Assembly: GCA_014380365.1 (NCBI GenBank)
Contig: JACMJZ010000024.1
Span: 186,001 to 250,000 of the forward strand
Direction: 5' to 3'
Source: Pyrinomonadaceae bacterium
GTDB lineage: Bacteria > Acidobacteriota > Blastocatellia > Pyrinomonadales > Pyrinomonadaceae
Length of the DNA stretch: 64,000 nucleotides
Part shown: positions 32,216 to 54,570 of the stretch, piece by piece
Layout: every line of letters starts with the position of its first letter
How positions within the stretch are numbered: position 1 is the stretch's first letter
Notes under the pieces: model-generated
Seen by the model: the letters and a program-made list of their open reading frames with translations, nothing else
What the model was told of the DNA's origin: nothing
Database searches by the model: none
Position numbers and translations under genes: made by a program

Positions 32216-32620
32216 CAGGGTCTTATTACCTTTCCTGGGATTTATTTGACTCACTTCCGTGAGTCGTCGCCGAAAACTCAAGCCGCTAAGTTAAGAAACG
32301 CTGAAAGTGGTTCTTTTCGAAGTCAAAAGCTAACCTTTCAAGCGTTTGAGAGTCGTTTAAAGGCTCTCATATTCCTGCTTGTCGTATGGACCTGGGGTCC
32401 TTCTAATGGTTGAGGTGGGAGCGTACCTACTATCTGACGGCCCGAAGGGGCATTGGGAGATTGATTCGCGACCGGGGCGAATATAACATTCGAGACAGGC
32501 AGCGGCAACACAAAAGTAATCTTTTGTACATAACTCGTGACATTGAGGCTCCATTTTGAAGGGCTCCCCAGGAATGAACAAAGTGTGAAAACTTCGGACA
32601 ATCGCTCAATTACAAGCTAA
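32216..32620. other. Divergent intergenic region, 405 bases
   Basis: This region lies between the leftward transpeptidase and the rightward histidine kinase. It holds a short hairpin (GACTCACTTCCGTGAGTC, 32248-32265) close to the transpeptidase start that could be an operator or leader structure. I see no credible small gene. No strong sigma-70 or sigma-54 promoter is evident by eye. Confidence 0.55.
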
Positions 32621-38336: not shown

Positions 38337-38960
38337 CTATTTGGTGGCAGGCATGACGGAGAGAGCGATGCGATAAACGGCGGCCCCATCCACATCCACA
38401 TCTTTGCTGACCGGCTCGCCTCCACCGGGCTTGGCAGTAATGCGATATTTACCGGCTTCGGGCGCGAGGCGAAACACGAAGGAGCCTGTCTCATTTGTAA
38501 CGCGGCCGTCAATCTTTTTCGCAGTGCCGTCAGCTTCTACTCTAGCCAACTCAATTTTGACGTTTGGCATACTGCGGCCATCCTCATTGAAAACGCTGCC
38601 GCGAATAAACGCGATGGAGCCTTCATCGATCGTGAGGATTAGACGGTCGCCCAGAGAACGCGGCTTCCCTGCCTTCACTTCGACGTTCTCGATCGTGCCC
38701 ACACTGAGTCCGGCCTTCCTCAGCGTTATGCCATACCGCCCGGGTCTTAATCCCTTTAATTCAAACTCTCCACTCCTGGCGGTAAGGCCACGTGCGACTT
38801 CGAGCTCGCCTTGTCGAACTACCACCGAGACACCAGCGGGGGTGCCAGTCTCAACCCGCACCTTCCCCTTAACTCCGCCGGTCGTTTTGTCCTGCGCAAA
38901 TGCGTTGCCTGCGAGCAGGATCGCGGCGAGGAAGACGAGCATCAATCTGTTGTGAGTCAT
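38337..38960 (-). CDS. Secreted carboxypeptidase-regulatory-like domain protein
   Basis: The protein has 207 residues. GGAGAAG lies upstream of ATG. The signal peptide ends at NAFAQDK. Two CarboxypepD_reg-like beta-sandwiches follow. The first is ~28-110 (VKGKVRVETGTPAGVSVVVRQ... FELKGLRPGRYGITL). The second is ~118-203 (FIRGSVFNEDGRSMPNVKIELA... FVFRLAPEAGKYRITA). Such domains are structural or adhesive modules common in Acidobacteriota envelope proteins. It has its own terminator. Confidence 0.83.
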   Translation of the reverse strand: MTHNRLMLVFLAAILLAGNAFAQDKTTGGVKGKVRVETGTPAGVSVVVRQGELEVARGLTARSGEFELKGLRPGRYGITLRKAGLSVGTIENVEVKAGKPRSLGDRLILTIDEGSIAFIRGSVFNEDGRSMPNVKIELARVEADGTAKKIDGRVTNETGSFVFRLAPEAGKYRITAKPGGGEPVSKDVDVDGAAVYRIALSVMPATK

Positions 38961-39126
38961 TGTTTCTTCTCCGAGAAGTGGTTTTGCTGTTGCTGCGGAA
39001 GTACTAGTCTATGGTGCTGTTAATTCTAGAGCGCTGAGATGATAACTCACGCCGACAATCGTCCCAACTGTTCGGGTATTGGGTTGATGCCTGAAAACTG
39101 TCCGACTGTTGCCCCGGACCTGACAG

Positions 39127-39299
39127 GCTGGGAGCGCAGGCATCTTGCCTGCAGTCGTGGAATGCCACTCTGTCCAAGTTCAAATACAACACCGACTCGA
39201 CTGAACCCGTGGCCTGAGGCAGGCAGGATGCCTGCGCTCCCAGCGCCGACTCGACTGAACCCGTGGCCTGAGGCAGGCAGGATGCCTGCGCTCCCAGCT
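39127..39299. repeat. 54-bp tandem duplication with inverted partner
   Basis: Two adjacent 54-base units (39192-39245 and 39246-39299) each contain GGCAGGATGCCTGCGCTCCC. A single inverted arm (GCTGGGAGCGCAGGCAT) lies at 39127-39143. The array looks like a palindromic element whose right arm was duplicated. Confidence 0.85.
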
Positions 39300-39316
39300 C
39301 GCGCTCCCAGCACAAC

Positions 39317-39345
39317 TTGGTGATGACAAACCCGCCTCGTATAAT
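39317..39345 (+). promoter_or_regulatory. Candidate promoter for the VWA gene
   Basis: A perfect TATAAT (39340-39345) is preceded after 17 bases by TTGGTG (39317-39322), a weak -35. It lies about 50 bases before the start codon. Confidence 0.45.
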
Positions 39346-39393
39346 TCCGGCAGCTCGAAAGGTTCTCTCTTCCACGCTCGATGCGACGTGTTT

Positions 39394-40452
39394 ATGTCTC
39401 GCCATTCAATCAAACTCATCAGCTGCTTATCACTCGCACTTCTCCTGTGTGCGACGAGTCTCCAACATTCAGCGCAGGAGCCGGACCGGAGCGCGCAGCG
39501 TCCGCGAGAAGTATTCCCACGAAGTGGTGAAGAGCCGGATGAGGTCTTAAAGATCGACACCGATCTCGTTTCCCTTGATGTCCTCGCGCACAATGCCGAG
39601 GGCCGGCCCATAAGAAATCTTCGCAAGGAGGATTTCAAAATCTACCTGGATGGCGTTGAACAGCCCCTGGCGTTTTTTCAGGTGGAGCGCAGGAGCGGCG
39701 AGCGGCGTCCCCTGGCAATCGTATTTGCCCTCGACATTTCCGGCAGCATGAGCGCTGTGGAGATGGCCCGTCTAAGAAGTGCGCTCAACGCGTTCGCCGC
39801 GAGGCTGGCGGGTCATCGCGCTCTTTACGCGGTCATGGCTTTCGGCATGAACGTCAAGACCGTGCAAAAGTTTACTTCCGAAACGGATAACCTGGATCGA
39901 GCATTTGAAAGAATCGCGCGCGAACCAGCCGGACTTTCAACGCACACCTACGACGCGGTTGACGATGCCATTCGCCTGCTTGTGCGCGAAGCGCCCCGCA
40001 CCCTCGACCGCCGGTTATTGAAACGTGCAGTCGTGGTGGTGACCGACGGATTTCCGGTTGGCGACACGGTATCGGCGCCCACGGTCATTGAGCGGGCAAA
40101 TGCCGCTGACGCAAGTGTCTACGTGGTCACTCTTCCTTCTTACTCGCGTGTGATGGCGGCGTCAACCAGAACTCCGCTGCCGACTCCGTTGGACGTAAGC
40201 GGGTTGGCTGAGTTGACTGGTGGCAGAAGCGTCTACGCTGAGGAAACCAACTACGATGCGCTCTTTCGCGCGCTGGCTGAGGAGGTGACTGCTGCCTATG
40301 TGCTCGCTTTCTATCCGCCGGAGCAGAAGCGCCGCGACGGCCAGTTTCACACTATTAAAGTGGAGGGTCCGAACGGATTAACATTGAGGCAAAGCAGACC
40401 GGGGTTTCAGGCGGAAGGACGGAGTCAGAAGGCAGTAAGCAAAAAGCAGTAG
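39394..40452 (+). CDS. VWFA-related (acidobacterial type) secreted protein
   Basis: From ATG 39394 the protein has 352 residues; GTG 39388 is an alternative. A signal peptide ends near QHSAQEP. Residues ~50-100 form a beta domain typical of the family (VSLDVLAHNAEGRPIRNL..EDF). The von Willebrand A domain follows with its metal site Asp114-x-Ser116-x-Ser118 (DISGSMS) and VVVTDGFP. This arrangement is abundant in Acidobacteriota and supports the taxonomic placement. The last ~10 codons (SQKAVSKKQ) are encoded by a dispersed repeat. Confidence 0.88.
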   Translation: MSRHSIKLISCLSLALLLCATSLQHSAQEPDRSAQRPREVFPRSGEEPDEVLKIDTDLVSLDVLAHNAEGRPIRNLRKEDFKIYLDGVEQPLAFFQVERRSGERRPLAIVFALDISGSMSAVEMARLRSALNAFAARLAGHRALYAVMAFGMNVKTVQKFTSETDNLDRAFERIAREPAGLSTHTYDAVDDAIRLLVREAPRTLDRRLLKRAVVVVTDGFPVGDTVSAPTVIERANAADASVYVVTLPSYSRVMAASTRTPLPTPLDVSGLAELTGGRSVYAEETNYDALFRALAEEVTAAYVLAFYPPEQKRRDGQFHTIKVEGPNGLTLRQSRPGFQAEGRSQKAVSKKQ

Positions 40453-41116: not shown

Positions 41117-41974
41117 ATGTTCGCGCTTCTAAGACGGTCCCAAATCAGCTTCGCGCTTCTCCTTTCGCTGCTCCTGCTCGGCTCGTATTTTCTCCTGGTA
41201 AGAAACGTCGCAAGAAACGTCGCCAGCAAACACTCCGGCGATAACCCTTCGCCTCCGGAATCCGCAAAAAAGACAACCGCCGTACATTCCGTTTCGCTCG
41301 ACTCCGACCACGACGGCATTCCCGACGCCGCGGAACTGCAAAGCTTCACGGACCGCGAGAATTTTCGCCGGTGGTTCACGGTTATCGCGGAGGGTCAGTT
41401 TTATCGCTTAAGCGAGCAATGGAATGCGGAGCAGCGAGACTGCTCGGGACTCGTGCGTTTTGCCTGGCGCGAAGCGCTGCGCCGGCATGATCGCGTTTGG
41501 TTTCAGAAGATGGGCGCCGCGTATACACCTATCGCGCCTGACGTTGCGCGTTACAGTCTCGAGAAAGGTCCACTGGGCGAAAAACTTTTCCGTTCAGATT
41601 TCGGCTCCTATAAAGATGGCGACTCCGCTGACGGCACCTTCTCGGAGTTTGCCGACGCTCGCACTCTCAAGAGCTTCAACACACGATTTATCAGCCGCCA
41701 CCGCCAACAAGCGCTACCTGGAGATCTGCTTTTCTTCAACCAGCCATGGGTCCAGAAGTTTCCCTATCACGTGATGATCTTTCTGGGCGCCTCGCAACAG
41801 GGCGACGAACCGAGCGGTTCGGTCGTCTACCACACCGGGTCGTCGCCAACTGACGTCGGAACGGTGAAGAAGGTGGCGCTTTCGGTTCTCGATCATCACC
41901 CAAACAAACGTTGGCGGCCCGTGGAAAGCAACACCAATTTCCTCGGCTTCTATCGTTTAAAGATTCTTGACTAA
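41117..41974 (+). CDS. DUF1175 (YfaT-like) protein with NlpC/P60-like Cys/His motifs
   Basis: The protein has 285 residues with one N-terminal membrane helix (~10-30). A calcium-loop-like segment SDHDGIPDAAEL lies near residue 65. The core carries DCSGLVRFAW with Cys109, LPGDLLFF, and YHVMIFLG with His218. These are the spaced motifs of NlpC/P60-type cysteine peptidases that cut peptidoglycan peptides. The overall length and the adjacent A2M gene match DUF1175 (YfaT) of the E. coli yfa locus. I infer a periplasmic cell-wall hydrolase or amidase tethered to the inner membrane. The A2M gene follows after 34 bases. Confidence 0.85.
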   Translation: MFALLRRSQISFALLLSLLLLGSYFLLVRNVARNVASKHSGDNPSPPESAKKTTAVHSVSLDSDHDGIPDAAELQSFTDRENFRRWFTVIAEGQFYRLSEQWNAEQRDCSGLVRFAWREALRRHDRVWFQKMGAAYTPIAPDVARYSLEKGPLGEKLFRSDFGSYKDGDSADGTFSEFADARTLKSFNTRFISRHRQQALPGDLLFFNQPWVQKFPYHVMIFLGASQQGDEPSGSVVYHTGSSPTDVGTVKKVALSVLDHHPNKRWRPVESNTNFLGFYRLKILD

Positions 41975-42008
41975 CTCTTTCTCCGCCTGGCCCAAGGAGG
42001 CTCTGTCC

Positions 42009-45000
42009 GTGTCTGAAACGAAATCTCGCTCTTATCGAGCCATTACCGCTTCCGTAATTTATCTCGTAGCAATCGCCGCAGCGCTCACAATTGCCACAAT
42101 GCGTTCGCGCGCGAAGGGAGGTCCTGCTCCCGAGCTTGAGATGGAAACTACTGAAAGGGCGCCGGCAACCAAACCTTTCTTCTCGCTTTCCACGCATCGC
42201 ACTTACGGATCAAACGATACCGCTCGTCTTTGGGTCGACTATCAGGCGGTTGACCACCTGGACTTCCGCGTCTACCAAGTAAAAGACCCGCGCAAGTTTT
42301 TCACAGAACTGAAAGACCCTCATCAACTTGGCGAACGGGAAGAGGAAGACGTAGCGAAGTCTCTACCACACCGCAGATCCTTTTTGGAGCGGGTGCGAGC
42401 TTTTAAGCGTTGGGCTTACACGGGAGTGAAGAGCTTCGTGCGTGGCCAACTTAAACGCGACTCGCGCTCGGCTTTCAACAAGAAGTTTCGCGCTGAAGCC
42501 GACATCGTGCGCACGCCGCTCAATGTTTCAGATTACGCGCGCGTGCCGTTACTAAATCCCGATCAGCTTGTGAGCAGTTGGCGAGAGCCGTTGCCTCCGC
42601 TTGAAAACGAATACGACCAACGCATGATTCCGCTGGGCAAACGAAGCCCTGGCGTTTACCTGGTGGAAGCGGTGCAAAACGATCTGCGCGCTTACACGGT
42701 GGTTGTGGTTACCGACTTGACCATGATCGACAAGACAACACGTGATGGAGAGTTGCTGGTTTACACGGTAGACCGCAAGACCGGTGAGCCACGTCCGGGC
42801 GCGCAGGTGGAAGTCGTCCGAGAGAAAAAGGTTGTCGCCAGCGGAACCACGGACCAACAGGGCATCCTCAGGACGAAGATCGAAAAAGCAAAACCGACTC
42901 AACCCAGCGAAGAGGAAGAAGTTGAAAATCCGGAGGACGCGGATCCGGAGTTTGCTCAATCCAAGTCGCTGCTAATCCTGGCCAGGGAGAGCAGCAACTT
43001 CGCGATATCCGATCTCGGCTCGTTGTATTTCGGCGGTTATGAAGATGAAGAAAGGGGACCGGAAATCAAGGGCTACATCTACACGGACCGTCCCGTTTAC
43101 CGGCCCGCGCACCAGATCAGTTTCAAGGGAATAGTTCGCGTCGTTGACGCCGCCGGGGGCTATAAACCCGTCACCAGCAACACAGTCAACGTGACGATTC
43201 AGGATCCTAACAGCGCCATCATCCTTACAAAAGAACTTCCGGTGTCACCGCGCGGCACGTTCAGCGGTGAAGTCGAAACGACGGAAGAGTCTCCGCTCGG
43301 CAGTTACAGCATTGCGGCAGAAGTCGATGGCGGAACGTCACGAGGCAGTTTCGAAGTGGCGGAGTACAAGAAGCCTGAATACAAAGTGAGCGTCGCCGCG
43401 CCTGGCAAATTCATCCAGGCCGGCCAGAAGATCAATTTCGGTATCGACGCGAAATATTTCTTTGGTTCGCCCGTGGCTAACGCCGAGGTTAAGTACTACA
43501 TCTACCGTTCACGCTATTACGCGTGGCGGGGTTACGGCGAAAGCGATGAGAGCGAAGGCGAGTCAGACGGCGAAGATGAGTATTCGCAGTACTACGGCGG
43601 CGGCGACGACATGGTGCAGGAGAGCGAAGGCAAGCTCGACGCACGCGGCCACATGAACGTCGAATTCCAGGTGCCGCAAGCTGACGAGAACGACACCTCG
43701 GATTACAGCTACCGGCTGGAAGCGCAGGTCACTGATGCCGCTCGTCGCACGATCGACGGCAGCGCCAGTTTCGTGGCAACCCGCGGCACGATCATCGCCG
43801 ATGCAAATCCTGACCGGTATGTTTACAAGAAAGGCGACGTGGCCAAGATTCGCGTCGCGACCAGCGACTATGAAGGCAAGCCTGTTTCGGCGAATGTTCA
43901 GCTCAAGTTCGTGGTGCGCACCTGGACCAGGAAGGAAAAGAAAGCCGACGACGAATATTCATACCCTGAGTATGAAATGCATGAACGCGAAATAGCCTCA
44001 GCCGCCGTCGCTACCGATTCACAAGGCCAGGCCAGCTACGACTACACCGCGACTGAAGCTGGCAACATTTCAATAAAGACAGTGATTAGCGAGGGTGGGA
44101 AACAAGTGGCCTCGATCGGAGGTTACCTCTGGGTTACCGATCAGCAACATGCATGGACTGATTCTTCCTATTTCAGCGAAGACCACACCTCCATCAAACT
44201 TGTGCCCGACAAAAAATCGTACCAGCCGGGCGAGACTGCGCACGTGCTGGCAATTCTGCCGACTGACAAGGCGCACCTGCTGGTGAGCACCGAGTTGTCT
44301 ACCGTGATTTCGGTCCAGCACGTTAGCTCGCCGGGCAAAACAATAGTGCTCGACATTCCCATCCAGGCGAGTTTTGCGCCGAACGTATTTCTCAACGTGT
44401 CATACGTGCGTGGCGGCGACATGTATTCGAGCGACCAGCGGCTCGTGGTGCCGGCGCGCGACAAGATGCTGAACCTGGAAATTATTTCGAACAAGAAGGA
44501 GTACAAGCCGCGCGAAAGTGCGTCGTACACCATTCTGGCGCGTAACGATCAGGGCGCTCCTGTGTCCGGCGCTGAAGTAAGCCTTGGTGTCGTGGACGAA
44601 GCAATCTACAGCGTGGCGCCTGACTACTCCGGCAACATCAAGAGCGAGTTTTATGGCATGCGCTACAACAGCGTCGAGACCCATCTCTCGATTAACTACA
44701 GCTTTACAGGTTATGCGGGCGATAAGCCCATCGAGCTCGCGAAGAACAAATCCGCCTATCAGCTAGCCGACTTCAAGAATGAAGGCGCCATGGTTCAGCC
44801 TACGATCAGGAAAAACTTTAAGGACACAGCCTTCTGGCAACCCGACGTGGTCACCGGCGCCGATGGCCGGGCGACTGTTAAAGTTGATCTGCCTGATAAC
44901 TTAACTACCTGGCGCGCCACCGCGCGCGGAGTCACTTCCGACACGAAAGTCGGCGCCACGAAATATAAAGTTGTCGCGCGCAAAGATGTGATCATGCGGC

Positions 45001-46922
45001 TGGAGACGCCGCGGTTCATTACGCAGGGCGACACGGTCACGCTATCCGGCATCGTCCACAACTATCTGGGCGAGGACAAATCCACACAAATTTCGCTCGA
45101 TGTCGACGGCGCACAGTTGCTCAATTCGGGCAAACAAACTGTTACCGTCACGAAGCAAGGCGAGCATCGCATTGATTGGCAGGTCTCAGCGCAGAACGTC
45201 GGCGAGATCAAGCTGCTGGCTAAAGCGCTGACAAATACTGAATCAGACGCCGTCGAGCTTCCAATCACAGTTGTGCCGCGCGGGCTTCACCAGGTGAAGA
45301 ACGAGACGGCGAGTTTCTCCGATGAAAATGCGGAGAAGACATTCTCCCTCGCGCTTCCTCAAAACGCCGACCCGCGCGCGCGGAGTTTGCGAATTGAAGT
45401 TGCGCCTTCGATCGCCGGGGCGCTCTTCGGCGCGTTGGATTACCTGACCACCTATCCCTACGGCTGCACCGAACAAACGATGTCGAGCTTCCTCCCCAAC
45501 GTAATCGTCGCCCGCGCTTTGAAAGACGTGAAGACGGCGTCTCTACGCGACTCAAACGATCTGGGTAAGAAAGTGAACAAGGGGTTGAAGCGGCTCTACG
45601 CATACCAGCACGACGACGGTGGTTGGGGTTGGTGGAAAGACGATCAGAGCGATCCCTTCATGACCGCCTACGTCGTTGACGGGCTCGCCCTCGCAAAGCA
45701 GAACGGCTATGAGATCGAAGATAACCGTCTCACCAGCGGACGCGAGAAGCTGAAACAGATGCTCGACGCAGGAACGACGGAAGCCGGGACCGCGATCGAC
45801 TCGGAGACTCGCGCCTTCATGATCTACGCGCTCGAGGTGAGCGGCGGCAGCGACGGCCGGCACCTTGAGAAGGTCTTCGGCGAGCGTAGCAACCTGCAAC
45901 CGTACGGTCGCGCACTTCTGGCGTTAACGCTGAAACAGCGGAAAGACGACAAACGCGCGCGCGAAGTTGCCGCTGAGATAGAACGAACAGCAACCACGGA
46001 CAGCGTTTCCGCCCACTGGGAATCCAACCGCAAAGCGATGCTCGACTTTTCCGAGTCAAACGACACCGAGGCCACTGCGCTATCGCTTCGGGCGCTAACC
46101 AGTATTAATCCCAAGAGCACGCTTCTGCCGCAGACGGCGCGCTGGCTCGTCTCAAACCGCCGCAACAGTCACTTCTGGAGTTCGACCAAGGACACAGCTT
46201 TCGCCATCCTTGGCTTGATCGACTATCTGAAAGTCAGCAAGGAGCTTTCCCCGGATTACGACGTGGAGGTTTATCTAAACGGCGAGAACGTGCTGACCCA
46301 ACACGTCTCGTCTGCTGCGACCTCGCAAACCTTCTCGATCTCGCGGAAGGCTGGCGACGTTGCAGGGAATAACGAGATTCGCGTGATTAAACGCGGCAAG
46401 GGAATGATTTATTTCTCGAGTTCGCTTGATTACTACACCGGCGAAGAGACCGTTGCCGCGCGAGGATCGGCCGAGCTTAACCTGACGCGCGAATACTTCC
46501 GTCTCAAAGTGGTTGACAATGGTGGCACGCTCAAGTGGAACGCCGAGCCGCTCCGTGGAGAAATACGTTCCGGCGACGTGTTGGTGGTGCGACTAAAACT
46601 GAACGGCGCCAAGGCCCGACACTTGATGATTGAAGATCCCATCCCGGCCGGCGCTGAACAGGTTGAGAGCGTTGGAAGTCTTAATCTCGATCACACCTCC
46701 GGCCACGACTGGTCCGACTGGTACAGCTCAAGGGAGTTTCGTGATAACCGGACCGTCTTCTTCCTTGACTACTTTGACGGCGATGCCACGCTGCAATACG
46801 CGATGCGCGTTCAGGTGCCCGGAGACTTTCGCGTGGCGCCGGCGCGAGCTGAATTGATGTACCGGCCGGCGACGCAGTCAAACACTACCTCGGGGAAGAT
46901 GGCGTTCCTGGAAAGAAAATGA
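42009..46922 (+). CDS. Bacterial alpha-2-macroglobulin with thioester
   Basis: GTG 42009 is the likely start (1637 residues), with AAGGAGG 8 bases upstream; a TTG at 41967 opens the frame earlier. One membrane helix (~14-34) anchors it. MG-type beta domains span ~50-800, with YTDRPVYRPAHQISFKG marking the conserved MG entry. An acidic loop (~500-535: ESDESEGESDGEDEYSQYY) may be exposed. The thioester is intact: Cys1153 and Gln1156 in YGCTEQ, followed by the helical thioester domain. A2Ms trap proteases after bait cleavage by covalent thioester attack, protecting the envelope. It is like E. coli YfaS in pairing with DUF1175 rather than PbpC. Confidence 0.93.
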   Translation: MSETKSRSYRAITASVIYLVAIAAALTIATMRSRAKGGPAPELEMETTERAPATKPFFSLSTHRTYGSNDTARLWVDYQAVDHLDFRVYQVKDPRKFFTELKDPHQLGEREEEDVAKSLPHRRSFLERVRAFKRWAYTGVKSFVRGQLKRDSRSAFNKKFRAEADIVRTPLNVSDYARVPLLNPDQLVSSWREPLPPLENEYDQRMIPLGKRSPGVYLVEAVQNDLRAYTVVVVTDLTMIDKTTRDGELLVYTVDRKTGEPRPGAQVEVVREKKVVASGTTDQQGILRTKIEKAKPTQPSEEEEVENPEDADPEFAQSKSLLILARESSNFAISDLGSLYFGGYEDEERGPEIKGYIYTDRPVYRPAHQISFKGIVRVVDAAGGYKPVTSNTVNVTIQDPNSAIILTKELPVSPRGTFSGEVETTEESPLGSYSIAAEVDGGTSRGSFEVAEYKKPEYKVSVAAPGKFIQAGQKINFGIDAKYFFGSPVANAEVKYYIYRSRYYAWRGYGESDESEGESDGEDEYSQYYGGGDDMVQESEGKLDARGHMNVEFQVPQADENDTSDYSYRLEAQVTDAARRTIDGSASFVATRGTIIADANPDRYVYKKGDVAKIRVATSDYEGKPVSANVQLKFVVRTWTRKEKKADDEYSYPEYEMHEREIASAAVATDSQGQASYDYTATEAGNISIKTVISEGGKQVASIGGYLWVTDQQHAWTDSSYFSEDHTSIKLVPDKKSYQPGETAHVLAILPTDKAHLLVSTELSTVISVQHVSSPGKTIVLDIPIQASFAPNVFLNVSYVRGGDMYSSDQRLVVPARDKMLNLEIISNKKEYKPRESASYTILARNDQGAPVSGAEVSLGVVDEAIYSVAPDYSGNIKSEFYGMRYNSVETHLSINYSFTGYAGDKPIELAKNKSAYQLADFKNEGAMVQPTIRKNFKDTAFWQPDVVTGADGRATVKVDLPDNLTTWRATARGVTSDTKVGATKYKVVARKDVIMRLETPRFITQGDTVTLSGIVHNYLGEDKSTQISLDVDGAQLLNSGKQTVTVTKQGEHRIDWQVSAQNVGEIKLLAKALTNTESDAVELPITVVPRGLHQVKNETASFSDENAEKTFSLALPQNADPRARSLRIEVAPSIAGALFGALDYLTTYPYGCTEQTMSSFLPNVIVARALKDVKTASLRDSNDLGKKVNKGLKRLYAYQHDDGGWGWWKDDQSDPFMTAYVVDGLALAKQNGYEIEDNRLTSGREKLKQMLDAGTTEAGTAIDSETRAFMIYALEVSGGSDGRHLEKVFGERSNLQPYGRALLALTLKQRKDDKRAREVAAEIERTATTDSVSAHWESNRKAMLDFSESNDTEATALSLRALTSINPKSTLLPQTARWLVSNRRNSHFWSSTKDTAFAILGLIDYLKVSKELSPDYDVEVYLNGENVLTQHVSSAATSQTFSISRKAGDVAGNNEIRVIKRGKGMIYFSSSLDYYTGEETVAARGSAELNLTREYFRLKVVDNGGTLKWNAEPLRGEIRSGDVLVVRLKLNGAKARHLMIEDPIPAGAEQVESVGSLNLDHTSGHDWSDWYSSREFRDNRTVFFLDYFDGDATLQYAMRVQVPGDFRVAPARAELMYRPATQSNTTSGKMAFLERK

Positions 46923-46942
46923 ACCGGGACTCCAAGGTGTTT

Positions 46943-46966
46943 AGAGGCGGGCATCGCCCGCCGCCT
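46943..46966. repeat. Short hairpin between A2M and TIM-barrel genes
   Basis: GAGGCGGGCATCGCCCGCCGCCTC forms a strong stem, preceded by GTGTTTAGAG as in other repeats here. It lies in the 68-base intergenic spacer. Confidence 0.75.
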
Positions 46967-46990
46967 CAACCAGCTAGCGAGGGAATCAAC

Positions 46991-48025
46991 ATGAATAATC
47001 CAAAAATCGTTTGCACCTTGTTCATATTTCTCTGCTGCGCCAGCGTTAGCGCCAGGCCGGTGCATCATTACGTCTTCTTCAGCCAGGACCGGCAGAAAAT
47101 CAAAGAGGCGTCATTTCTCGAGACGAAGGCATTGGAAGGTGCGCAGGTGACGTATCCGTGGCGGCTACTGGAGCGCGGCAAGGATGAATACGATTTCAGC
47201 GCCATCCGCGAAGATCTCGCATTTCTAAACTCGAAGGGGAAGAAGTTATTTATCCAGCTCCAGGACGTTACCTTCAGCGAGCAGTGGAAAGGTGTACCGG
47301 GCTACCTGCTGCGCGATCCGATTTATAACGGCGGCGCCGACAAGCAATACAAGGTCAAGAACGGCGACGAAGAACACGCGGTCGTCGACGGTTGGGCGGC
47401 AAGGCGCTGGGATCCCGCGGTGCAGGAGAGGTTTCACAAGTTGCTCTTTGCTTTAGGGAAAGAGTTCGACGGTCGCATTGAGGGTATCAACTTCGCCGAG
47501 AGCTCCGTCGGCTTCGGTGCAAGCGGACGACTGTTTCCCAAAGGCTTCACTTTTGAAATCTATCGCGACGCGATTATTACCAACCTGAAGGCATTGAAAC
47601 GCGCTTTCCCAAAGTCGATCGCCTTGCAGTACGCCAACTTCATGCCCGGCGAGTGGCGGCCTATTAACGATAGAGGCTATCTGCGAGCGGTCTACCAGGC
47701 CGCGAAAGAATCGAAGGTTGGCGTGGGCGGCCCTGACCTGCGGCCCTATCGACCCGGCCAACTGCAAAACTCCTATCCTTTGATCAGGGAAGCGGCGGGA
47801 ATCGTACCTATCGGGATTGCAGTCCAGGATGGCAACTACGAGGACGTGAATCCCACAACCGGAAAGCGCGTAACGATTGCCGAACTCATCAAATTCGCGA
47901 AGGAGTACCTGAAGGTTGACTATATCTTCTGGTGCACTCAGGAGCCGTACTACTCTGAGGATTTGATACCGTTTATGAGGCGCGTCAGCGGTAACGGCTC
48001 AATTCGTAAACGGGAGCGGGGGTAA
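46991..48025 (+). CDS. Secreted TIM-barrel (glycoside-hydrolase-like) protein
   Basis: ATG 46991 (344 residues) has GAGGG 7 bases upstream and starts a signal peptide ending near VSARPV. The fold reads as a (beta/alpha)8 barrel of the GH42/GH5 kind (QVTYPWRLLERGKDEYDF; KKLFIQLQDVTF; ALQYANFMPGEW). Candidate catalytic acids are Glu170 (NFAESS) and Glu318 (WCTQEPYY). The exact family is not identified. In this locus a sugar-cleaving enzyme acting on cell-wall or surface glycan is plausible. The last codons (RKRERG) and the stop lie inside a palindromic repeat half. Confidence 0.75.
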   Translation: MNNPKIVCTLFIFLCCASVSARPVHHYVFFSQDRQKIKEASFLETKALEGAQVTYPWRLLERGKDEYDFSAIREDLAFLNSKGKKLFIQLQDVTFSEQWKGVPGYLLRDPIYNGGADKQYKVKNGDEEHAVVDGWAARRWDPAVQERFHKLLFALGKEFDGRIEGINFAESSVGFGASGRLFPKGFTFEIYRDAIITNLKALKRAFPKSIALQYANFMPGEWRPINDRGYLRAVYQAAKESKVGVGGPDLRPYRPGQLQNSYPLIREAAGIVPIGIAVQDGNYEDVNPTTGKRVTIAELIKFAKEYLKVDYIFWCTQEPYYSEDLIPFMRRVSGNGSIRKRERG

Positions 48026-48042
48026 ACCACCCTTCCCAACCT
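48016..48042. repeat. Solitary half of the GCGGGGGTAAACC repeat
   Basis: The 27 bases match the left arm at 8588-8614 and continue with CTGAGAGACTTTC, but no right arm follows. The TAA in the arm is the stop codon of the TIM-barrel gene. Confidence 0.8.
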
Positions 48043-48157
48043 GAGAGACTTTCAGAGTTGAGTGATTCCCCTGGATGTTGAGGGCTTAATATTCTTGAAA
48101 TGCTCGCGGCTCTGTAAAAGCGTTCGCTTCAACGATTCCTGGTGAGGTTAAAATTAA

Positions 48158-49057
48158 ATGCTGACTGAAACATTCCATTCAATCGCCACTGCCGCGCGCA
48201 AGCTCTTAAAGAACTGGCAGTCGATGGTGGTACTCGCCATCGTCTACGCCGTGTTGCTGGCAGCTCTCTATTTCTTCATGGCTATCAGAGAGGCGAGCAT
48301 CGCGCAGGTGGTGCTGACTTTCGGGCTTGCGATTGCTGCGTTTGTCCTCTTCTTCCTTCTCCAGGCGATAATCGCCGGAGGAATCGCCGGAGGAATCGCC
48401 GGAGTGAGCGGCAGTGAGCCTGGCGCGAAAACCGGATTTGGCATTGGGAGTTTGGTGAAGCGTTCTGTTGCCAACCTATGGAAATTGGTTGTGATCAGTT
48501 TGCCGCTGATTGTCCTGGCCATTCTGATCGCATACTTGTTGGGGAAAGCTCAAAATTACTTCTGGGTCGAACCAAACGCCGCCAACGACATGCTCGAACC
48601 CATGGCCGGCTCAAGATCACGCAACCCGGCGCGCGCGCCAATCAACTGGAGAGTGGCGATATTCTCCAGCCTTCGCTACCTGTCTTTCGGACTTCTGTTG
48701 CCCCTGGCGACAATTCATCTCTGGCTGGCCACGGTTCGCGATGGCTTGTGGCCGGCGACCAGGAGAATAGGCACGCACCTGTCGCGGGCTTTCGCTCCAC
48801 AGTCAGTGCTTATTTACATACTGGGCTTTCTGGTGTTTGGGCTGTTGCCATATTTCCTGCTTTTCAAAGCGACACCCACCAGCAGGGCGTGGCTTGAGAT
48901 TTCCCTTCTGGTTGTGCGGCTTGCCGTGGTTTTCGCTTTGACTCTATTCGGGTGGGTGATCACCGTGTGGGCGCTGTCACATTCTTCGACGCCTCCTACG
49001 CATCCGAGTCCCTCGGCCAAGGCGGCTGCGGTTGAGCCGGCAAGAGAGGCTGCATGA
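48158..49057 (+). CDS. Polytopic membrane protein, unknown
   Basis: The protein has 299 residues with about six helices (~24-43, 52-80, 110-133, 173-196, 216-236, 246-272). A glycine-rich stretch (AGGIAGGIAGVSG) lies after helix 2. GAGG lies 10 bases before ATG. The stop overlaps the next start (ATGA), so it is coupled to the transpeptidase-SpoIID fusion and probably acts with it in the membrane. No family is recognised. Confidence 0.72.
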   Translation: MLTETFHSIATAARKLLKNWQSMVVLAIVYAVLLAALYFFMAIREASIAQVVLTFGLAIAAFVLFFLLQAIIAGGIAGGIAGVSGSEPGAKTGFGIGSLVKRSVANLWKLVVISLPLIVLAILIAYLLGKAQNYFWVEPNAANDMLEPMAGSRSRNPARAPINWRVAIFSSLRYLSFGLLLPLATIHLWLATVRDGLWPATRRIGTHLSRAFAPQSVLIYILGFLVFGLLPYFLLFKATPTSRAWLEISLLVVRLAVVFALTLFGWVITVWALSHSSTPPTHPSPSAKAAAVEPAREAA

Positions 49058-52044
49058 TGTCTGCACGTAGCTCAACGCGCTTAGCTGGGCCGCTATCGCC
49101 CAACGGTCTCGGAGATGTCCTTGCGAACGGACGCCGAGGATCAACTGCCACGCGCCGGCTATTTCTGAGCGCAGCCGTGATCTGCATCTTTGGATTGCCG
49201 CTGGCTTTGACCTTGTCACCGTCAGCCGGCTCCAGTCCATCCGCTCTATTTGCTTCCATGTCCGGCTGGTTCAAAGAAAACAGCGAGGACCGTGCTGACG
49301 AGCGTTTGCAGGTGGCGGCCACCAGCGCGCTCGGCGGTCGCAGCGGCACTGTGATCATCATGGATCCACAGACAGGGCGGATTCGCGCGGTCGTCAATTC
49401 CAAGGTCGCTTTCGAAGAATCCTTTCGGCCGGGTTCGACTATCAAACCGTTAACCGCGCTCGCCGCGTTGAGGTCAGGCATCATCGCCGAAGGATCGGAG
49501 TCGCTCTGCCGCGAGAAGTTTGCGCATGAAGAGTTTCATACCACGTGTTCGCATCCGCGCGATTTGCCGCCATTGAATCCTACCGAGGCGATTGCCTATT
49601 CCTGCAACTACTACTTCGGAAAGGTTGGCGAGCGCGTAACTGAGTCGAGCTTTAATTCCACACTTGGCGATTTTGGCTTCGGCAAGAAGAGTGGCATCAA
49701 CCGAAGCACGGAGTCTGCGGGTAAACTTCTGCGCAGCGCCTGGCGCCCGCAGAGCGCGATGGGCGAGGGCGACTATCTTCAAACTACGCCGATTCAACTC
49801 ATCAACGCCTATTCCACACTTATCAACGGCGGGCGTCTCTTTTCACCTCGAAGCGCCAACGCGAAAGGTTTCGTCCCAAATCTACAAACTGACCTTGCCA
49901 TCAGCGCTGAGCATCGCGCGTTGATTCTCAAAGGAATGCGCGGGGCGATTCGCTACGGTACCGCCGAATCAGCCGGCCTCTACTCGCTGCCAATCTATAC
50001 GTTTGGAAAGACAGGCACGGCCACTGAGATTAATGGATTTCGTATGCAGGGCTGGTTTGTTGGGTTTGCGTCAGAGTTGACTGCCGGTGCGAGTGGCCAA
50101 ACGGAAGGCTCCGAACTCGCGCCAGATAAAGCGAAGCTCGCGGTGCTTGTTTTCCTGTCGCGAGGCCATGGCGCGGAAGCAGCTGGAGTGGCGAGGCCGA
50201 TCTTCGCTGCGTATGCCGATGCAGAGACTCAGAGAAAGGGAGACATGGAGACGCGGGGCACCGGTCATCCGGTGACGCGCGAGCTTACCGATTCGCCGCG
50301 TCTCCGAGTCCCCGCGTCGCCGCGGCGCGACCCAAGCGCATCTTTCGTACGCGTTCAGCTGCGTGCGGAAAATGTCACGCGCGCTATGCCTCTCGAAGAT
50401 TACGTGCGGGGGGTGGTTGCGGCTGAGGGAAGCACCGAAACGGAAGTTGAAGCTCTGAAGGCCCTGGCGATCGCCAGTCGCACGTACGCGCTCAAGAACA
50501 TTCACCGCCATGCGCGCGATGGTTACGACTTCTGCACGTCCACGCATTGCCAGCGCTATCGCGCCGCGGATTTGGGTTCGACTGATGACGTTTCCTCAGA
50601 TGTTATCGAAGCCGTCGAAAAGACACGAGGCGAAGTGTTGCTTGGCAGTGACGCACAAGTCGCTGATTCTTATTTCAGCGCCTCATGCGGCGGTGCGACA
50701 GCGAATCTTGCGGCGCTCTGGGGCGGAACGGCGCCACCACACTTGCGAGGCGTGCGCGACGAGGATTGCGCCAGCGAGCCTCATGCAAATTGGACCGACA
50801 CGATCCCGCAGGCTCAATTGCTGAAGGCGCTCAACAGCGACGCCCGCACGAGCGTTGGCAACCGGCTCGAGGGCGTCCGTGTCTTGCGGAGTGATGCGAG
50901 CGGACGCGCGGAGTCAATCGTCCTCGAAGGCGATAGGCGGCTCACGGTAAAAGGTTGGGACTTTAAGATCATCGTGGGGCGTGCGCTCGGTTGGAACCTA
51001 TTGAAGAGTTCACGTTTCACGGTGGAACGCGTCGGATCGAATTTCGTTTTTCGAGGTAGCGGGTTTGGCCACGGACTCGGTCTTTGCCAGGAGGGCGCGC
51101 ACGTAATGGCCCAGCGCGGCGCAAGTTACCGCCAAATCCTCGCCAGGTATTTTCCCGGCACTGACGTGGGCGGTATGGTTGCGGCTATGCCGCCGCACAG
51201 TGCGGAAAGGCTCGGCCTTTCCGTCCCAGGGTCAAGTTTCCTTTTGCGAGGCTACGCCTCGCCAGAGAGGCAAAGCCTCTTAGAAGATAGGAAAGGTCAA
51301 CCCCCGGAAAGGCGAAGCATTTCCGCACTGTGCGGCGGCAGAGCCGCAGAATCCGCCGCCGAGCCCCGAGCGTCTGCCGATTTACTTTGGAATGATGCCG
51401 GTGGTTTCGAGTTCACAAAAGCACGAAGAGTAACTGGAAATTCCAGGCTCCTTCGCGTAGCCCCTCGTCGCACTCTGTCCAGCGAACACTTTCGGGTCAA
51501 CTATCCCGCCACCATCAACCAACGCGAAGTCGAAGTACTGTTGTCCTTTCTTCAGTCAAGCCGCAGATCGCTGATCGCGCGCGTTACTGCTGCCGGAGTT
51601 ACCCCTCAGTTCCCTGCGCTGGAGATTTTCATTAACGAAACGACGGGTGACTTTGTGGGACGCACGCGACAACCTCCCTGGGCCGCAGCGGCAACTCAAA
51701 ATAATCGGATTGAGCTTCAGCCACTCGCAACGCTAAAGCGCCGGCGAATACTCGAAACAACCTTGCGCCACGAACTTGTACACACGGTCGTAGACGTTTT
51801 GGGCCGGGGACGAACTCCGCGATGGCTTGCTGAGGGTCTGGCGTTACACTATGCGGATGAAGGCCGGCTTATAGCCCGCTATGAACCACGGAAGCGCATG
51901 GCGGTTGAAGAAATAGAGGCGCAACTAGCGGGAGCCACGTCGTCCGGCGAGATGAAGACGGCGTATGCCGCAGCGTACCGCGAAGTGAAAAGGCTTATTA
52001 GCGGCGAAGGCGAAACTAATGTCTGGCGACGAGTGGCTCGCTAA
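49054..52044 (+). CDS. Transpeptidase-SpoIID-metallopeptidase fusion protein
   Basis: The protein has 996 residues. One membrane helix lies at ~33-52. The penicillin-binding transpeptidase domain (~85-380) has Ser128 in STIK, Ser183 in SCN and Lys319 in KTG. A SpoIID/LytB domain follows (~430-708: MPLEDYVRGVVAAE, YFSASCGG, GFGHGLGLCQEGA). In sporulation proteins this domain cuts denuded peptidoglycan strands. Residues ~711-766 are encoded by a 169-base repeat. The C-terminus is a gluzincin-like peptidase with HELVH (906-910) and Glu927 in WLAEG. All three catalytic motif sets appear intact. The start overlaps the membrane gene. This is a cell-wall cutting and joining enzyme with an attached protease. 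Confidence 0.88.
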   Translation: MMSARSSTRLAGPLSPNGLGDVLANGRRGSTATRRLFLSAAVICIFGLPLALTLSPSAGSSPSALFASMSGWFKENSEDRADERLQVAATSALGGRSGTVIIMDPQTGRIRAVVNSKVAFEESFRPGSTIKPLTALAALRSGIIAEGSESLCREKFAHEEFHTTCSHPRDLPPLNPTEAIAYSCNYYFGKVGERVTESSFNSTLGDFGFGKKSGINRSTESAGKLLRSAWRPQSAMGEGDYLQTTPIQLINAYSTLINGGRLFSPRSANAKGFVPNLQTDLAISAEHRALILKGMRGAIRYGTAESAGLYSLPIYTFGKTGTATEINGFRMQGWFVGFASELTAGASGQTEGSELAPDKAKLAVLVFLSRGHGAEAAGVARPIFAAYADAETQRKGDMETRGTGHPVTRELTDSPRLRVPASPRRDPSASFVRVQLRAENVTRAMPLEDYVRGVVAAEGSTETEVEALKALAIASRTYALKNIHRHARDGYDFCTSTHCQRYRAADLGSTDDVSSDVIEAVEKTRGEVLLGSDAQVADSYFSASCGGATANLAALWGGTAPPHLRGVRDEDCASEPHANWTDTIPQAQLLKALNSDARTSVGNRLEGVRVLRSDASGRAESIVLEGDRRLTVKGWDFKIIVGRALGWNLLKSSRFTVERVGSNFVFRGSGFGHGLGLCQEGAHVMAQRGASYRQILARYFPGTDVGGMVAAMPPHSAERLGLSVPGSSFLLRGYASPERQSLLEDRKGQPPERRSISALCGGRAAESAAEPRASADLLWNDAGGFEFTKARRVTGNSRLLRVAPRRTLSSEHFRVNYPATINQREVEVLLSFLQSSRRSLIARVTAAGVTPQFPALEIFINETTGDFVGRTRQPPWAAAATQNNRIELQPLATLKRRRILETTLRHELVHTVVDVLGRGRTPRWLAEGLALHYADEGRLIARYEPRKRMAVEEIEAQLAGATSSGEMKTAYAAAYREVKRLISGEGETNVWRRVAR
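51180..51348. repeat. 169-bp composite palindromic element, copy 2 (translated)
   Basis: The arms TGCGGCTATGCCGCC...CAGTGCGG (51180-51205) and complement (51323-51348) enclose inner hairpins (GAGGC/GCCTC, GGAAAGG/CCTTTCC). The length is identical to copy 1 at 14950-15118. It is read in frame as the linker between the SpoIID and metallopeptidase domains. Confidence 0.87.
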
Positions 52045-52060
52045 AGAAGAAGTGTTCAGA

Positions 52061-52108
52061 GTACAACCTTCAGGTTGCAAATACCGAGCTGCAAGCTAAA
52101 GCTTATAC
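52061..52108. repeat. Paired short palindromes (ACAACCTTCAGGTTG type)
   Basis: GTACAACCTTCAGGTTGC is followed by GCTGCAAGCTAAAGCTTATAC. It shares the GTGTT.AGAGT lead with the repeats at 40881 and 46936. It lies in the 87-base gap before the DUF3352-like gene. Confidence 0.7.
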
Positions 52109-52131
52109 TCAAAACCAGCACAGGTGCTCAC

Positions 52132-54570
52132 ATGCCGAAACTCCAAAGCAGCAAAAATTTGATCAGCCTCGCCCTGGCGCTTGCGCTCCTTGCCTCGCCG
52201 GCTATCGCTATTGCTCAACAAAAGCGCCCGGCGCCGCGGAAGCCGGCGGCCCAGGCACCTGCACCCACACCCAGACCTGTACCTGCACCTGCGAGGACGC
52301 CAACATTTGACACCCTCCTCGCCGCCGACAGCTACCGAGTTTATGCAGAGGTCAGGGGCGTTGGGCAACTGATTCGCTCACCTGCCGTGACCGATTTGCT
52401 GGAGCCCATGGTGAAACTCGGGAGCCCGTCGAAAGAGTTTGAGGGAATGCTGAAGTGGCTCAACGCGCAGGCGGATGCGCTTGCGAGCTCGCGAATGCTG
52501 GTAGCCAGCTGGGCAACGAAACCCAATCTTCCAGTCTTTTTGCTGGCGATTGAATTTGACTCTCCCGAGGAAGCACAAAAGTTTGATCCGAAGTTGCGGC
52601 GCTTTATCCCCACCTTGCTGCCCACCCCTACACCCACTCCCGCATCAACACCGGCGTTGCCGGGGGAGAGTTCTGATGGCCCTGCCGTGGTTGGCCCGCC
52701 CGCAACTACGCCGGCGCCAAACAGTGGGCCAGCCGTACCGCCCTACGTAATAAAGCAGTCAGGCTCTTTGATACTTATCAGTGATAAGCCATTTGCGTTT
52801 AAAGATGTGGCGCCTCGTGGCAGTAAGTTGCTTTCAGAGGACCAGAATTTCGCCACCGCGCGTAATCGTTTTGCTTCCGAGTCGATCTTTGTGTACATCG
52901 ACACTAAGTCGATCCAAAAAGAACAGGAAGAACAACTTAAGAAATACGAAGAGGAATATAAACAGAGAGAACTCGAAGCAGCCAGTCGGCCCACGCCTGA
53001 AGAGACGCCGGTCGATGCGGATTTGGAGCTAACGACGCTTGTGGCGCCAGTGCCGGTACCGGAGGGCACTCCTCAAGGGGAATTAGAAACTAGTCAGCCT
53101 ACTCCCGTCCCCGTGCAGTCGACCGCAACCTTGTCCGGGTCTGACGGCTCAGCCTCGTCTGGCATGTCCGAGGCGATGATGTTCCCGTTCTACAGCCTTT
53201 TGTTTGGCGGCGAGTCGATGTGGCCCGAAGCGGTGGGGGTCGCCGTGGTCTTCGAGGGCGATGCTTATGTCCTACGCACCTTGGTTATCAACGGCCCGGA
53301 CAATAAGGCCAACGCGATACCGTTTGTCCCGCAATTCATTTCCGGCCCCGCGCTCATTCCCGAGTCTCCCAACATTTTCCCCGCCGACAGTGATCTCTTT
53401 GTCGCCTTCTCGGTCGACTATCCGCAAGTTTATGAAGGTATGATGAAGTCGTTGGCGCACGCAGACGAGATGGCGAAAAAGTTCGGCGGACGGGTTGCTT
53501 CACTGGCTCCCCGTGAACCCCCCTTCGCCGCTTATGAGAAGAAGCTGGGCCTAAAGATCAAGGACGACTTGTTACCGCTTCTGGGAAACGAGGTAGCGCT
53601 GGCGCTTCTCCAACTTCCCAAGCCGTCGGCTGCTGTCGCTGAAAGCAGTCCGGGGCCTGGAGGCCCCGAGGACAGTGGGAAAAAAGCTCCGCCACCCGCC
53701 CCGCCGGATCCAAGTCCGGTGATCGCCATTGCCATAAAGGACCGCGATGCCGTACGGCGCCTTATACCCAAGATCATCGAGTCGTTTGGATTCAAAGGCG
53801 CTGGTCTCCTGGCCCAAACCGAAAAACGTGATGACACGGAGATCACTTCATACGCCGGCGCTTTCTCTTATGCGTTTGTCGGCAACTTCCTGGTGTTCTC
53901 AACTGATCCCGCCGCCACGCGACGGACGGTCGATTCATTCCTGGATCATCAGACACTTTCGTCGGATAGTCATTTCAAGAACACGATACGCTGGCAACCG
54001 CGACAGCTCCTGGGCCAGCTTTATGTCGCCCCCGACCTCGTCGAGCGCTATTACCCCATGGCCATCGCCGGCGCTCAGGGTCAGGATGAGTTGAGAGACT
54101 TCTTGTATCGTCTCAGTCCGGTGCTCGATCCTGTTAGCTATGCCCTCACCAATGATGGTCTGGGACCGCTGCATGAGCTGCACGTTCCCCGAAACATGGT
54201 CATGATGATGGTGGCCGGAATGTCGAAAGACACGAGCGAATCGCCGCTAATTACAAACGAATCAACAGCGAAGGGAGTGCTGAGAACGGTGGTTAACGCT
54301 CAAGAGACATTCAAGTCGACCCGGGACGATGGCCGTTATGGGACTCTTGAAGAATTGACTGCGGAAGGATTGTTCGACAAGACCTGGCTGCAATCACATG
54401 GATATAAACTTGAGTTGACTGTCTCAGGAAATAAATTTGAGGCAACCGCCGTCCCGGTCGAGTATGGCAAGACGGGTTTGCTCTCTTACTTTATCGACGA
54501 TAGCGGCATCTTGCGCGGCGGCGACCATGGCGGCGGCAATGCGACGATTGCCGACAACCCGATCCGGTAG
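52132..54570 (+). CDS. Secreted DUF3352-like protein with pilin-like C-terminal module
   Basis: ATG 52132 (812 residues) has AGGTG upstream and a signal peptide ending near AIAQQKR. Pro/Thr-rich linkers separate beta-alpha modules. The pattern in ~85-700 (SYRVYAEVRGVGQLI; GNEVALALLQLP; YAFVGNFLVFSTDP) is that of DUF3352-type proteins. The final ~95 residues (STAKGVLRTVVNAQETFKST...YFIDDSGILRGG) resemble the globular part of type-II pseudopilins without the N-terminal helix. It is the last gene of the A2M-linked group. The E. coli yfa locus also has a large exported protein of unknown fold, so it may be the counterpart of DUF2138. That link is unverified. Confidence 0.75.
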   Translation: MPKLQSSKNLISLALALALLASPAIAIAQQKRPAPRKPAAQAPAPTPRPVPAPARTPTFDTLLAADSYRVYAEVRGVGQLIRSPAVTDLLEPMVKLGSPSKEFEGMLKWLNAQADALASSRMLVASWATKPNLPVFLLAIEFDSPEEAQKFDPKLRRFIPTLLPTPTPTPASTPALPGESSDGPAVVGPPATTPAPNSGPAVPPYVIKQSGSLILISDKPFAFKDVAPRGSKLLSEDQNFATARNRFASESIFVYIDTKSIQKEQEEQLKKYEEEYKQRELEAASRPTPEETPVDADLELTTLVAPVPVPEGTPQGELETSQPTPVPVQSTATLSGSDGSASSGMSEAMMFPFYSLLFGGESMWPEAVGVAVVFEGDAYVLRTLVINGPDNKANAIPFVPQFISGPALIPESPNIFPADSDLFVAFSVDYPQVYEGMMKSLAHADEMAKKFGGRVASLAPREPPFAAYEKKLGLKIKDDLLPLLGNEVALALLQLPKPSAAVAESSPGPGGPEDSGKKAPPPAPPDPSPVIAIAIKDRDAVRRLIPKIIESFGFKGAGLLAQTEKRDDTEITSYAGAFSYAFVGNFLVFSTDPAATRRTVDSFLDHQTLSSDSHFKNTIRWQPRQLLGQLYVAPDLVERYYPMAIAGAQGQDELRDFLYRLSPVLDPVSYALTNDGLGPLHELHVPRNMVMMMVAGMSKDTSESPLITNESTAKGVLRTVVNAQETFKSTRDDGRYGTLEELTAEGLFDKTWLQSHGYKLELTVSGNKFEATAVPVEYGKTGLLSYFIDDSGILRGGDHGGGNATIADNPIR

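What the first reader, a model, noticed from the sequence alone, without database searches (positions are those of the whole stretch)
41117..54570. Alpha-2-macroglobulin locus built around cell-wall enzymes
Seen: six same-strand genes in ~13.5 kb with short gaps or overlaps. They encode a DUF1175 protein with DCSGLV/LPGD/HVMIFLG motifs, a thioester A2M (CTEQ), a TIM-barrel protein, a membrane protein, a transpeptidase-SpoIID-metallopeptidase fusion and a DUF3352-like protein. Established: E. coli yfaS (A2M) sits with yfaT (DUF1175) and other uncharacterised secreted proteins; other A2Ms pair with PbpC. Inference: this is a yfa-type envelope-defence system in which wall repair and cutting enzymes act with the protease trap.
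Basis: partly seen in the sequence, partly recalled or inferred. Interest (0 to 1): 0.82.

Follow-up and report, generated by a model that had tools for sequence, protein, structure and literature searches.

The report
Thioester macroglobulin operon with cell-wall enzymes
A soil bacterium and its relatives carry a conserved gene set pairing a complement-like trap protein with cell-wall building, cutting and protein-cutting enzymes; it is an intact-looking cousin of the poorly understood E. coli yfa / Pseudomonas mag envelope-protection operon and suggests which part might process the trap.

Summary
In detail: six same-strand ORFs at 41117-54570. Genome comparison shows a four-gene core, not six: DUF1175, thioester A2M, a 6-7-TM protein, and a transpeptidase-SpoIID-HExxH protein. 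The core recurs in the class loci with enough contig; A2M sits beside DUF1175 in 18/18 phylum-wide loci read. The TIM-barrel gene is an unlinked passenger and the DUF3352-like gene is found mainly in the genus. E. coli YfaQ / Pseudomonas MagE is a divergent homologue of the fusion (profile-profile 95.7%, E 1e-8); its N-domain folds like a transpeptidase but has lost SxN and KTG, while SxxK and HExxH stay invariant. Deinococcota have a three-gene version: DUF1175, thioester A2M, stand-alone HExxH gene. The A2M here and in 43/43 loci of this phylum and Deinococcota keeps the thioester that defines 'Type I', and 7 of 80 Pseudomonas mag loci keep it too, so the Type I/II split does not follow operon type. 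My mechanism: an inner-membrane, peptidoglycan-anchored protection complex; the HExxH domain is a candidate A2M-processing protease (published: deleting magE seems to block MagD processing). Counter-evidence: SpoIID-HExxH proteins also occur without A2M. No function was tested. New variant of a known kind.

The parts
41117..41974 (+). DUF1175 protein (YfaT/MagC family), NlpC/P60-like, N-terminal hydrophobic segment, EF-hand/TSP3-like DSDHDGIPD at residues 62-70; DC109SG, H218, YHTG conserved
   Evidence: Pfam 3e-66 and NlpC/P60 2e-6; MagC 7bk8 2e-25; family alignment with invariant D-C, H, YHTG; positions
41967..46922 (+). alpha-2-macroglobulin with bait region, TED and thioester YPYGCTEQ (CTEQ at about 45465-45476)
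   Evidence: Pfam; best PDB matches mosquito TEP1, CD109, human A2M, Salmonella A2M, E. coli YfhM; thioester in 43/43 DUF1175-linked A2Ms of this phylum and Deinococcota
48158..49057 (+). 6-7-segment membrane protein, core member
   Evidence: homologues follow A2M in the relatives by BLAST; positional homologues of 6-7 segments in other families, hhalign 95% for two of three groups, 26% for the third
49054..52044 (+). transpeptidase - SpoIID - HExxH metallopeptidase fusion (996 aa)
   Evidence: PF00905 1e-39, PF08486 4e-23, TIGR02669 7e-53; catalytic residues 24/24 (TP, SpoIID Glu) and 23/23 (HExxH+E) in the family
49345..50073 (+). transpeptidase domain, SxxK (PGSTIK 126-131), SCN (183-185), KTG (319-321) intact
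50341..51171 (+). SpoIID lytic-transglycosylase domain, Glu458, FCTSTHCQ and GHGLGLCQ motifs intact
51469..52041 (+). gluzincin-like domain HELVH(906-910)...WLAEG(924-928); matches the Deinococcota stand-alone gene
52075..54570 (+). DUF3352-like secreted protein; lineage-restricted accessory, membership in the system doubtful
   Evidence: Pfam 1e-11; six same-genus loci and one other genus
46919..48025 (+). TIM-barrel-like secreted protein, probably an inserted passenger
   Evidence: homologues in 6 other relatives, none at this locus, some in genomes without DUF1175

Best explanation
This is a catalytically intact-looking variant of the yfa/mag envelope-protection system. SHOWN by sequence: a conserved four-gene core with a thioester A2M, an NlpC/P60-like DUF1175 protein, a polytopic membrane protein and a transpeptidase-SpoIID-HExxH protein with its active-site motifs intact; across three phylum-level groups the recurring set is DUF1175 + A2M + an HExxH domain. 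INFERRED: the A2M is held at the inner membrane and cell wall, DUF1175 serving as peptidoglycan anchor as published for MagC, the membrane protein taking the scaffold role that MagB has in Pseudomonas. The HExxH domain cleaves or matures the A2M so that its thioester can act, and SpoIID plus transpeptidase open and re-crosslink peptidoglycan at the site, giving protection against envelope attack, as mag does against peptidoglycan-targeting T6SS effectors. Likelihoods, my own estimates: yfa/mag-related envelope protection about 0.75; wall remodelling at the complex about 0.5; HExxH as A2M-processing protease about 0.3.
For: Core conservation. In 59 relatives, a strong HExxH-domain match (E<1e-40) in 23 of 24 DUF1175-positive genomes and in only 2 of 35 negatives, both of which carry A2M and/or membrane-gene remains at contig ends. 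Deinococcota: DUF1175 > thioester A2M > ~200-aa HExxH gene (hhalign 99.7%, E 2.7e-25). YfaQ/MagE homology: SpoIID Pfam 7e-6, hhalign 95.7%, E 1e-8 over TP and SpoIID; MagE model N-domain has penicilloyl-serine-transferase fold, Z 13.9. HEYLH conserved throughout the YfaQ/MagE set. Literature: magE deletion seems to prevent MagD processing, MagB scaffold (PMC5764988); mag protects against VgrG3 and Tae1 (PMC12663445); delta-yfaQ cells wider, YfaQ predicted TP-like + SpoIID-like (PMC12282094); DUF1175 described as inactive and PG-binding (PMC10318531).
Against: Nine DUF1175-negative genomes from other classes encode SpoIID-HExxH proteins with no TP, A2M or DUF1175 nearby, so HExxH may serve SpoIID or peptidoglycan rather than the A2M. 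HExxH homology between this fusion and MagE is weak by profile alone (17-26%) and rests on colinearity and the conserved motif. The MagD processing defect in delta-magE was read by its authors as a signal-peptide or chaperone effect, with higher-mass forms. MagB/YfaA and MagF/YfaP have no counterpart here. The fusion gene lies on the opposite strand to A2M in several families, and unlinked or ~30 kb away in two genomes. No expression or activity data.
Confidence: 0.55

Rival explanations
1. Peptidoglycan-remodelling unit: SpoIID, HExxH and DUF1175 together cut and trim peptidoglycan, TP re-crosslinks, and the A2M simply inhibits stray proteases; HExxH never touches the A2M.
For: SpoIID-HExxH proteins occur without A2M in nine genomes; MagD protects against peptidoglycan-targeting effectors and not the other effector classes tested; delta-yfaQ has a cell-width phenotype.
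Against: In Deinococcota the HExxH gene is in the A2M operon with no SpoIID or TP annotated in the 17-29 kb read; magE deletion alters MagD processing.
Confidence: 0.3
2. A protease-trap operon in which DUF1175, TP, SpoIID and HExxH are non-catalytic adaptor or scaffold domains.
For: DUF1175 is described as an inactive PG-binding family; MagE has lost SxN and KTG.
Against: In this lineage TP, SpoIID and HExxH catalytic residues are invariant in all aligned homologues, which scaffolds would not need.
Confidence: 0.1
3. Neighbouring genes of unrelated function.
For: TIM and DUF3352-like genes are not conserved.
Against: Four-gene core conserved across many families, near-perfect co-occurrence among relatives, re-use in other phyla.
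Confidence: 0.03

Closest known systems
Pseudomonas aeruginosa mag operon (magABCDEF)
   Same: DUF1175 (MagC) beside A2M (MagD) and a TP/SpoIID/HExxH-type protein (MagE)
   Different: MagD mostly YPYGGVEQ without Cys; MagE lacks SxN/KTG and the SpoIID Cys motif; has MagA, MagB, MagF, which were not found here; here a 6-7-TM protein instead
E. coli yfaA-T-S-Q-P
   Same: yfaT, yfaS, yfaQ correspond to the first, second and fifth genes here
   Different: yfaA (DUF2138) and yfaP (DUF2135) have no counterpart; yfaS is annotated a pseudogene in K-12 MG1655
Type I A2M with PbpC (E. coli yfhM-pbpC)
   Same: thioester A2M paired with a peptidoglycan transpeptidase
   Different: partner is TP-SpoIID-HExxH, not the glycosyltransferase-TP PbpC; DUF1175 present
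SpoIID
   Same: domain architecture and motifs (best PDB match 4rwr, 3e-26)
   Different: fused to TP and a metallopeptidase
Deinococcota DUF1175-A2M-HExxH genes (Meiothermus, Deinococcus plasmids)
   Same: DUF1175, thioester A2M and HExxH domain
   Different: no TP, SpoIID or 6-7-TM gene seen in the regions read; HExxH is a separate gene

Membership tests
yfa/mag (Type II A2M) operon | DUF1175 gene directly beside A2M | tested here: met
yfa/mag (Type II A2M) operon | YfaQ/MagE-type protein | tested here: met
   hhalign 95.7%, E 1e-8
yfa/mag (Type II A2M) operon | A2M lacks the CXEQ thioester (published definition of Type II) | tested here: not met
   CTEQ at residue 1167
yfa/mag (Type II A2M) operon | DUF2138 (YfaA/MagB) and DUF2135 (YfaP/MagF) genes | tested here: not met
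   no Pfam hit among the nine proteins scanned; DUF3352 versus DUF2138 1.9%
Type I A2M with PbpC | thioester | tested here: met
Type I A2M with PbpC | adjacent PbpC (glycosyltransferase-TP) | tested here: not met
   no glycosyltransferase domain in P0005; PbpC model NF051885 scores 12.5 against cut-off 900
NlpC/P60 superfamily (DUF1175) | conserved Cys and His | tested here: met
NlpC/P60 superfamily (DUF1175) | peptidoglycan hydrolysis | not testable with these tools
   DUF1175 is called inactive and PG-binding in PMC10318531
SpoIID/LytB | TIGR02669 above cut-off, catalytic Glu | tested here: met
   180.3 bits against 83.3; Glu 24/24
Penicillin-binding transpeptidase | SxxK, SxN, KTG | tested here: met
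   24/24
Gluzincin metallopeptidase | HExxH plus downstream Glu ligand | tested here: met
   23/23
Gluzincin metallopeptidase | fold | tested here: inconclusive
   single-sequence model pLDDT 43

The most novel reading that the evidence does not exclude
A bacterial complement-like module: a dedicated HExxH 'convertase' activates a thioester protein at the cell wall, with DUF1175 as wall-binding sensor. Its minimal form (DUF1175 + thioester A2M + HExxH) spans at least three phylum-level groups and has been elaborated with wall-cutting and wall-sealing enzymes; the published 'Type II' Mag/Yfa systems are degenerate descendants that lost thioester and transpeptidase chemistry.
Probability: 0.2. 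Interest if true: 0.85.

Novelty: new variant of a known kind. Interest (0 to 1): 0.62.

Why it matters
The mag/yfa operon is conserved, protects Pseudomonas from rivals' wall-cutting toxins, and its mechanism is unknown. An intact relative points to the chemistry the degenerate versions may have descended from, gives MagE/YfaQ a third, metallopeptidase domain not mentioned in the accounts I could read, links that to the unexplained MagD processing defect, and shows that thioester presence does not separate two operon types.

Tried and rejected
DUF3352-like = YfaA (hhalign 1.9%). TIM as a component (unlinked elsewhere). Placing MagD relative to thioester A2Ms by tree: deep branches long and unresolved, so 'Type II derived from thioester ancestors' rests on operon homology and on 7 of 80 Pseudomonas loci with CVEQ, not on the A2M tree. 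Weak HExxH hits in f7 and f4 genomes: ~900-aa proteins matching only the HExxH region. AlphaFold model of the P0005 C-terminal domain alone: poor. The fold searches of the MagE model were filled by its N-domain, so its SpoIID and HExxH parts were not tested structurally. No solved structure matches the HExxH domain by profile. Literature searches found no paper joining SpoIID to bacterial A2M, but the library holds open-licence papers only.

Full report
OBSERVATION. DUF1175/A2M overlap by 8 bp, A2M/TIM by 4, membrane gene/fusion by 4; TIM-membrane gap 132 bp, fusion-DUF3352 gap 30 bp. The A2M has the thioester YPYGCTEQ. P0005 holds a transpeptidase domain (residues 98-340), a SpoIID domain (about 430-706) and a C-terminal domain with HELVH...WLAEG.

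CONSERVATION. DUF1175 occurs in 24 of 59 relatives. Reading the DNA around it, A2M is adjacent in 23/23 loci; the membrane gene and the fusion follow in that order in the loci with enough contig, over several families of the class. TIM never does. Homologues of TIM sit elsewhere, some in genomes lacking DUF1175. DUF3352-like appears in six same-genus loci and one other genus, and one same-genus locus (L034) lacks it. With a profile of the HExxH domain, 23 of 24 DUF1175-positive relatives match strongly; the exception (G056) ends at the contig edge. Two negatives match, and both turn out to be truncated copies of the same operon with A2M and/or membrane-gene remains.

WIDER PHYLUM. DUF1175 is in 38 of 297 genomes drawn from the phylum. 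In 18 loci read, A2M is adjacent in 18; the fusion, or its parts, lies in the same 20 kb in 15. In f15 genomes the fusion is split into neighbouring TP and SpoIID-HExxH genes; in f28 it is permuted to HExxH-SpoIID and TP was not found; in other families it lies convergent to A2M; in one genome it is on another contig and in one about 30 kb away. A membrane protein with 6-7 hydrophobic segments directly follows A2M, usually overlapping by 4 bp, in most families but not in f28. Nine DUF1175-negative genomes have SpoIID-HExxH proteins without TP or A2M nearby: the main counter-evidence to a purely A2M-directed role for HExxH.

OTHER PHYLA. Plasmids of Meiothermus and Deinococcus carry DUF1175, a thioester A2M and a ~200-aa gene annotated 'hypothetical protein'. 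That gene matches the C-terminal domain of P0005 (4e-11 for Meiothermus; hhalign 99.7%, 2.7e-25) and keeps HExxH. In Pseudomonas (80 loci) and Enterobacteriaceae the corresponding protein is MagE/YfaQ. E. coli YfaQ has a SpoIID Pfam hit (7e-6); the profile of the fusion aligns to the YfaQ/MagE family over TP and SpoIID with 95.7% probability, E 1e-8. SxxK and HEYLH are conserved throughout that set, but SxN has become SCG and KTG has become KTW. The AlphaFold model of P. aeruginosa PA7 MagE (pLDDT 79) has a penicilloyl-serine-transferase N-domain (Z 13.9). A 2025 paper had already predicted TP-like and SpoIID-like parts in YfaQ and reported wider cells in the deletion; the HExxH domain is not mentioned in the passages I read, and its supplement was not available.

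THIOESTER. 43/43 DUF1175-linked A2Ms from this phylum and Deinococcota keep CxEQ (33 CTEQ, 9 CVEQ, 1 CSEQ). In Pseudomonas mag operons most have YPYGGVEQ, yet seven keep CVEQ, including P. citronellolis and P. panipatensis, which group with P. aeruginosa. So 'Type II lacks the thioester' is not a stable property of mag-type operons. The A2M tree does not resolve how MagD relates to the others.

MECHANISM. Published: MagD forms an inner-membrane complex with MagA, MagB and MagF; magB deletion destabilises it; magE deletion seems to prevent MagD processing, which the authors explain as a chaperone or signal-peptide effect. DUF1175 is described as inactive and peptidoglycan-binding. The mag operon protects against VgrG3 and Tae1. 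My synthesis: the same kind of complex, here with TP, SpoIID and HExxH catalytic residues intact (24/24, 24/24, 23/23). The HExxH domain is the component shared by every DUF1175-A2M system examined with enough sequence, which makes it a candidate A2M-processing protease. This step is inference; the SpoIID-HExxH proteins without A2M are the best argument against it.

MEMBERSHIP AND NOVELTY. It meets some and fails other defining features of both published classes (Type II mag/yfa; Type I with PbpC), so I file it under neither: it is a new variant related to yfa/mag. All functions here are predictions.

Noticed in passing
window 41300-41335 (P0001 residues 62-73): EF-hand/TSP3-like DxDxDGxPDxxE motif beside the DUF1175 domain, in the window and all relatives of its class checked, one other-class locus (L076) and 3/3 Deinococcota, but not the remaining other-class loci or gammaproteobacteria.
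   Followed up: partly
L095, L097, L098, L099, L104, L110, L153: Seven Pseudomonas mag-operon A2Ms keep a CVEQ thioester although mag A2Ms are described as thioester-free.
   Followed up: partly
L193-L199, L202, L203: SpoIID-HExxH proteins of about 500-680 aa without TP, A2M or DUF1175 in nine genomes of other classes.
   Followed up: partly
L083-L088: Permuted HExxH-SpoIID architecture next to DUF1175-A2M.
   Followed up: partly
L180 3989-9985 and L181 4321-10362: Two further ~2000-aa thioester A2Ms in the window's own genome.
   Followed up: no
window 38337-40452: A VWA-domain gene and a divergent neighbour upstream have homologues near the locus in seven relatives, mainly of the same genus.
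   Followed up: no
window 30488-32281: An ORF on the - strand resembles the transpeptidase part of P0005 (31-35% identity); probably a separate penicillin-binding protein.
   Followed up: no
L028 and L187: The HExxH part of the fusion lies in a separate neighbouring ORF in two relatives; real split or assembly error not resolved.
   Followed up: no
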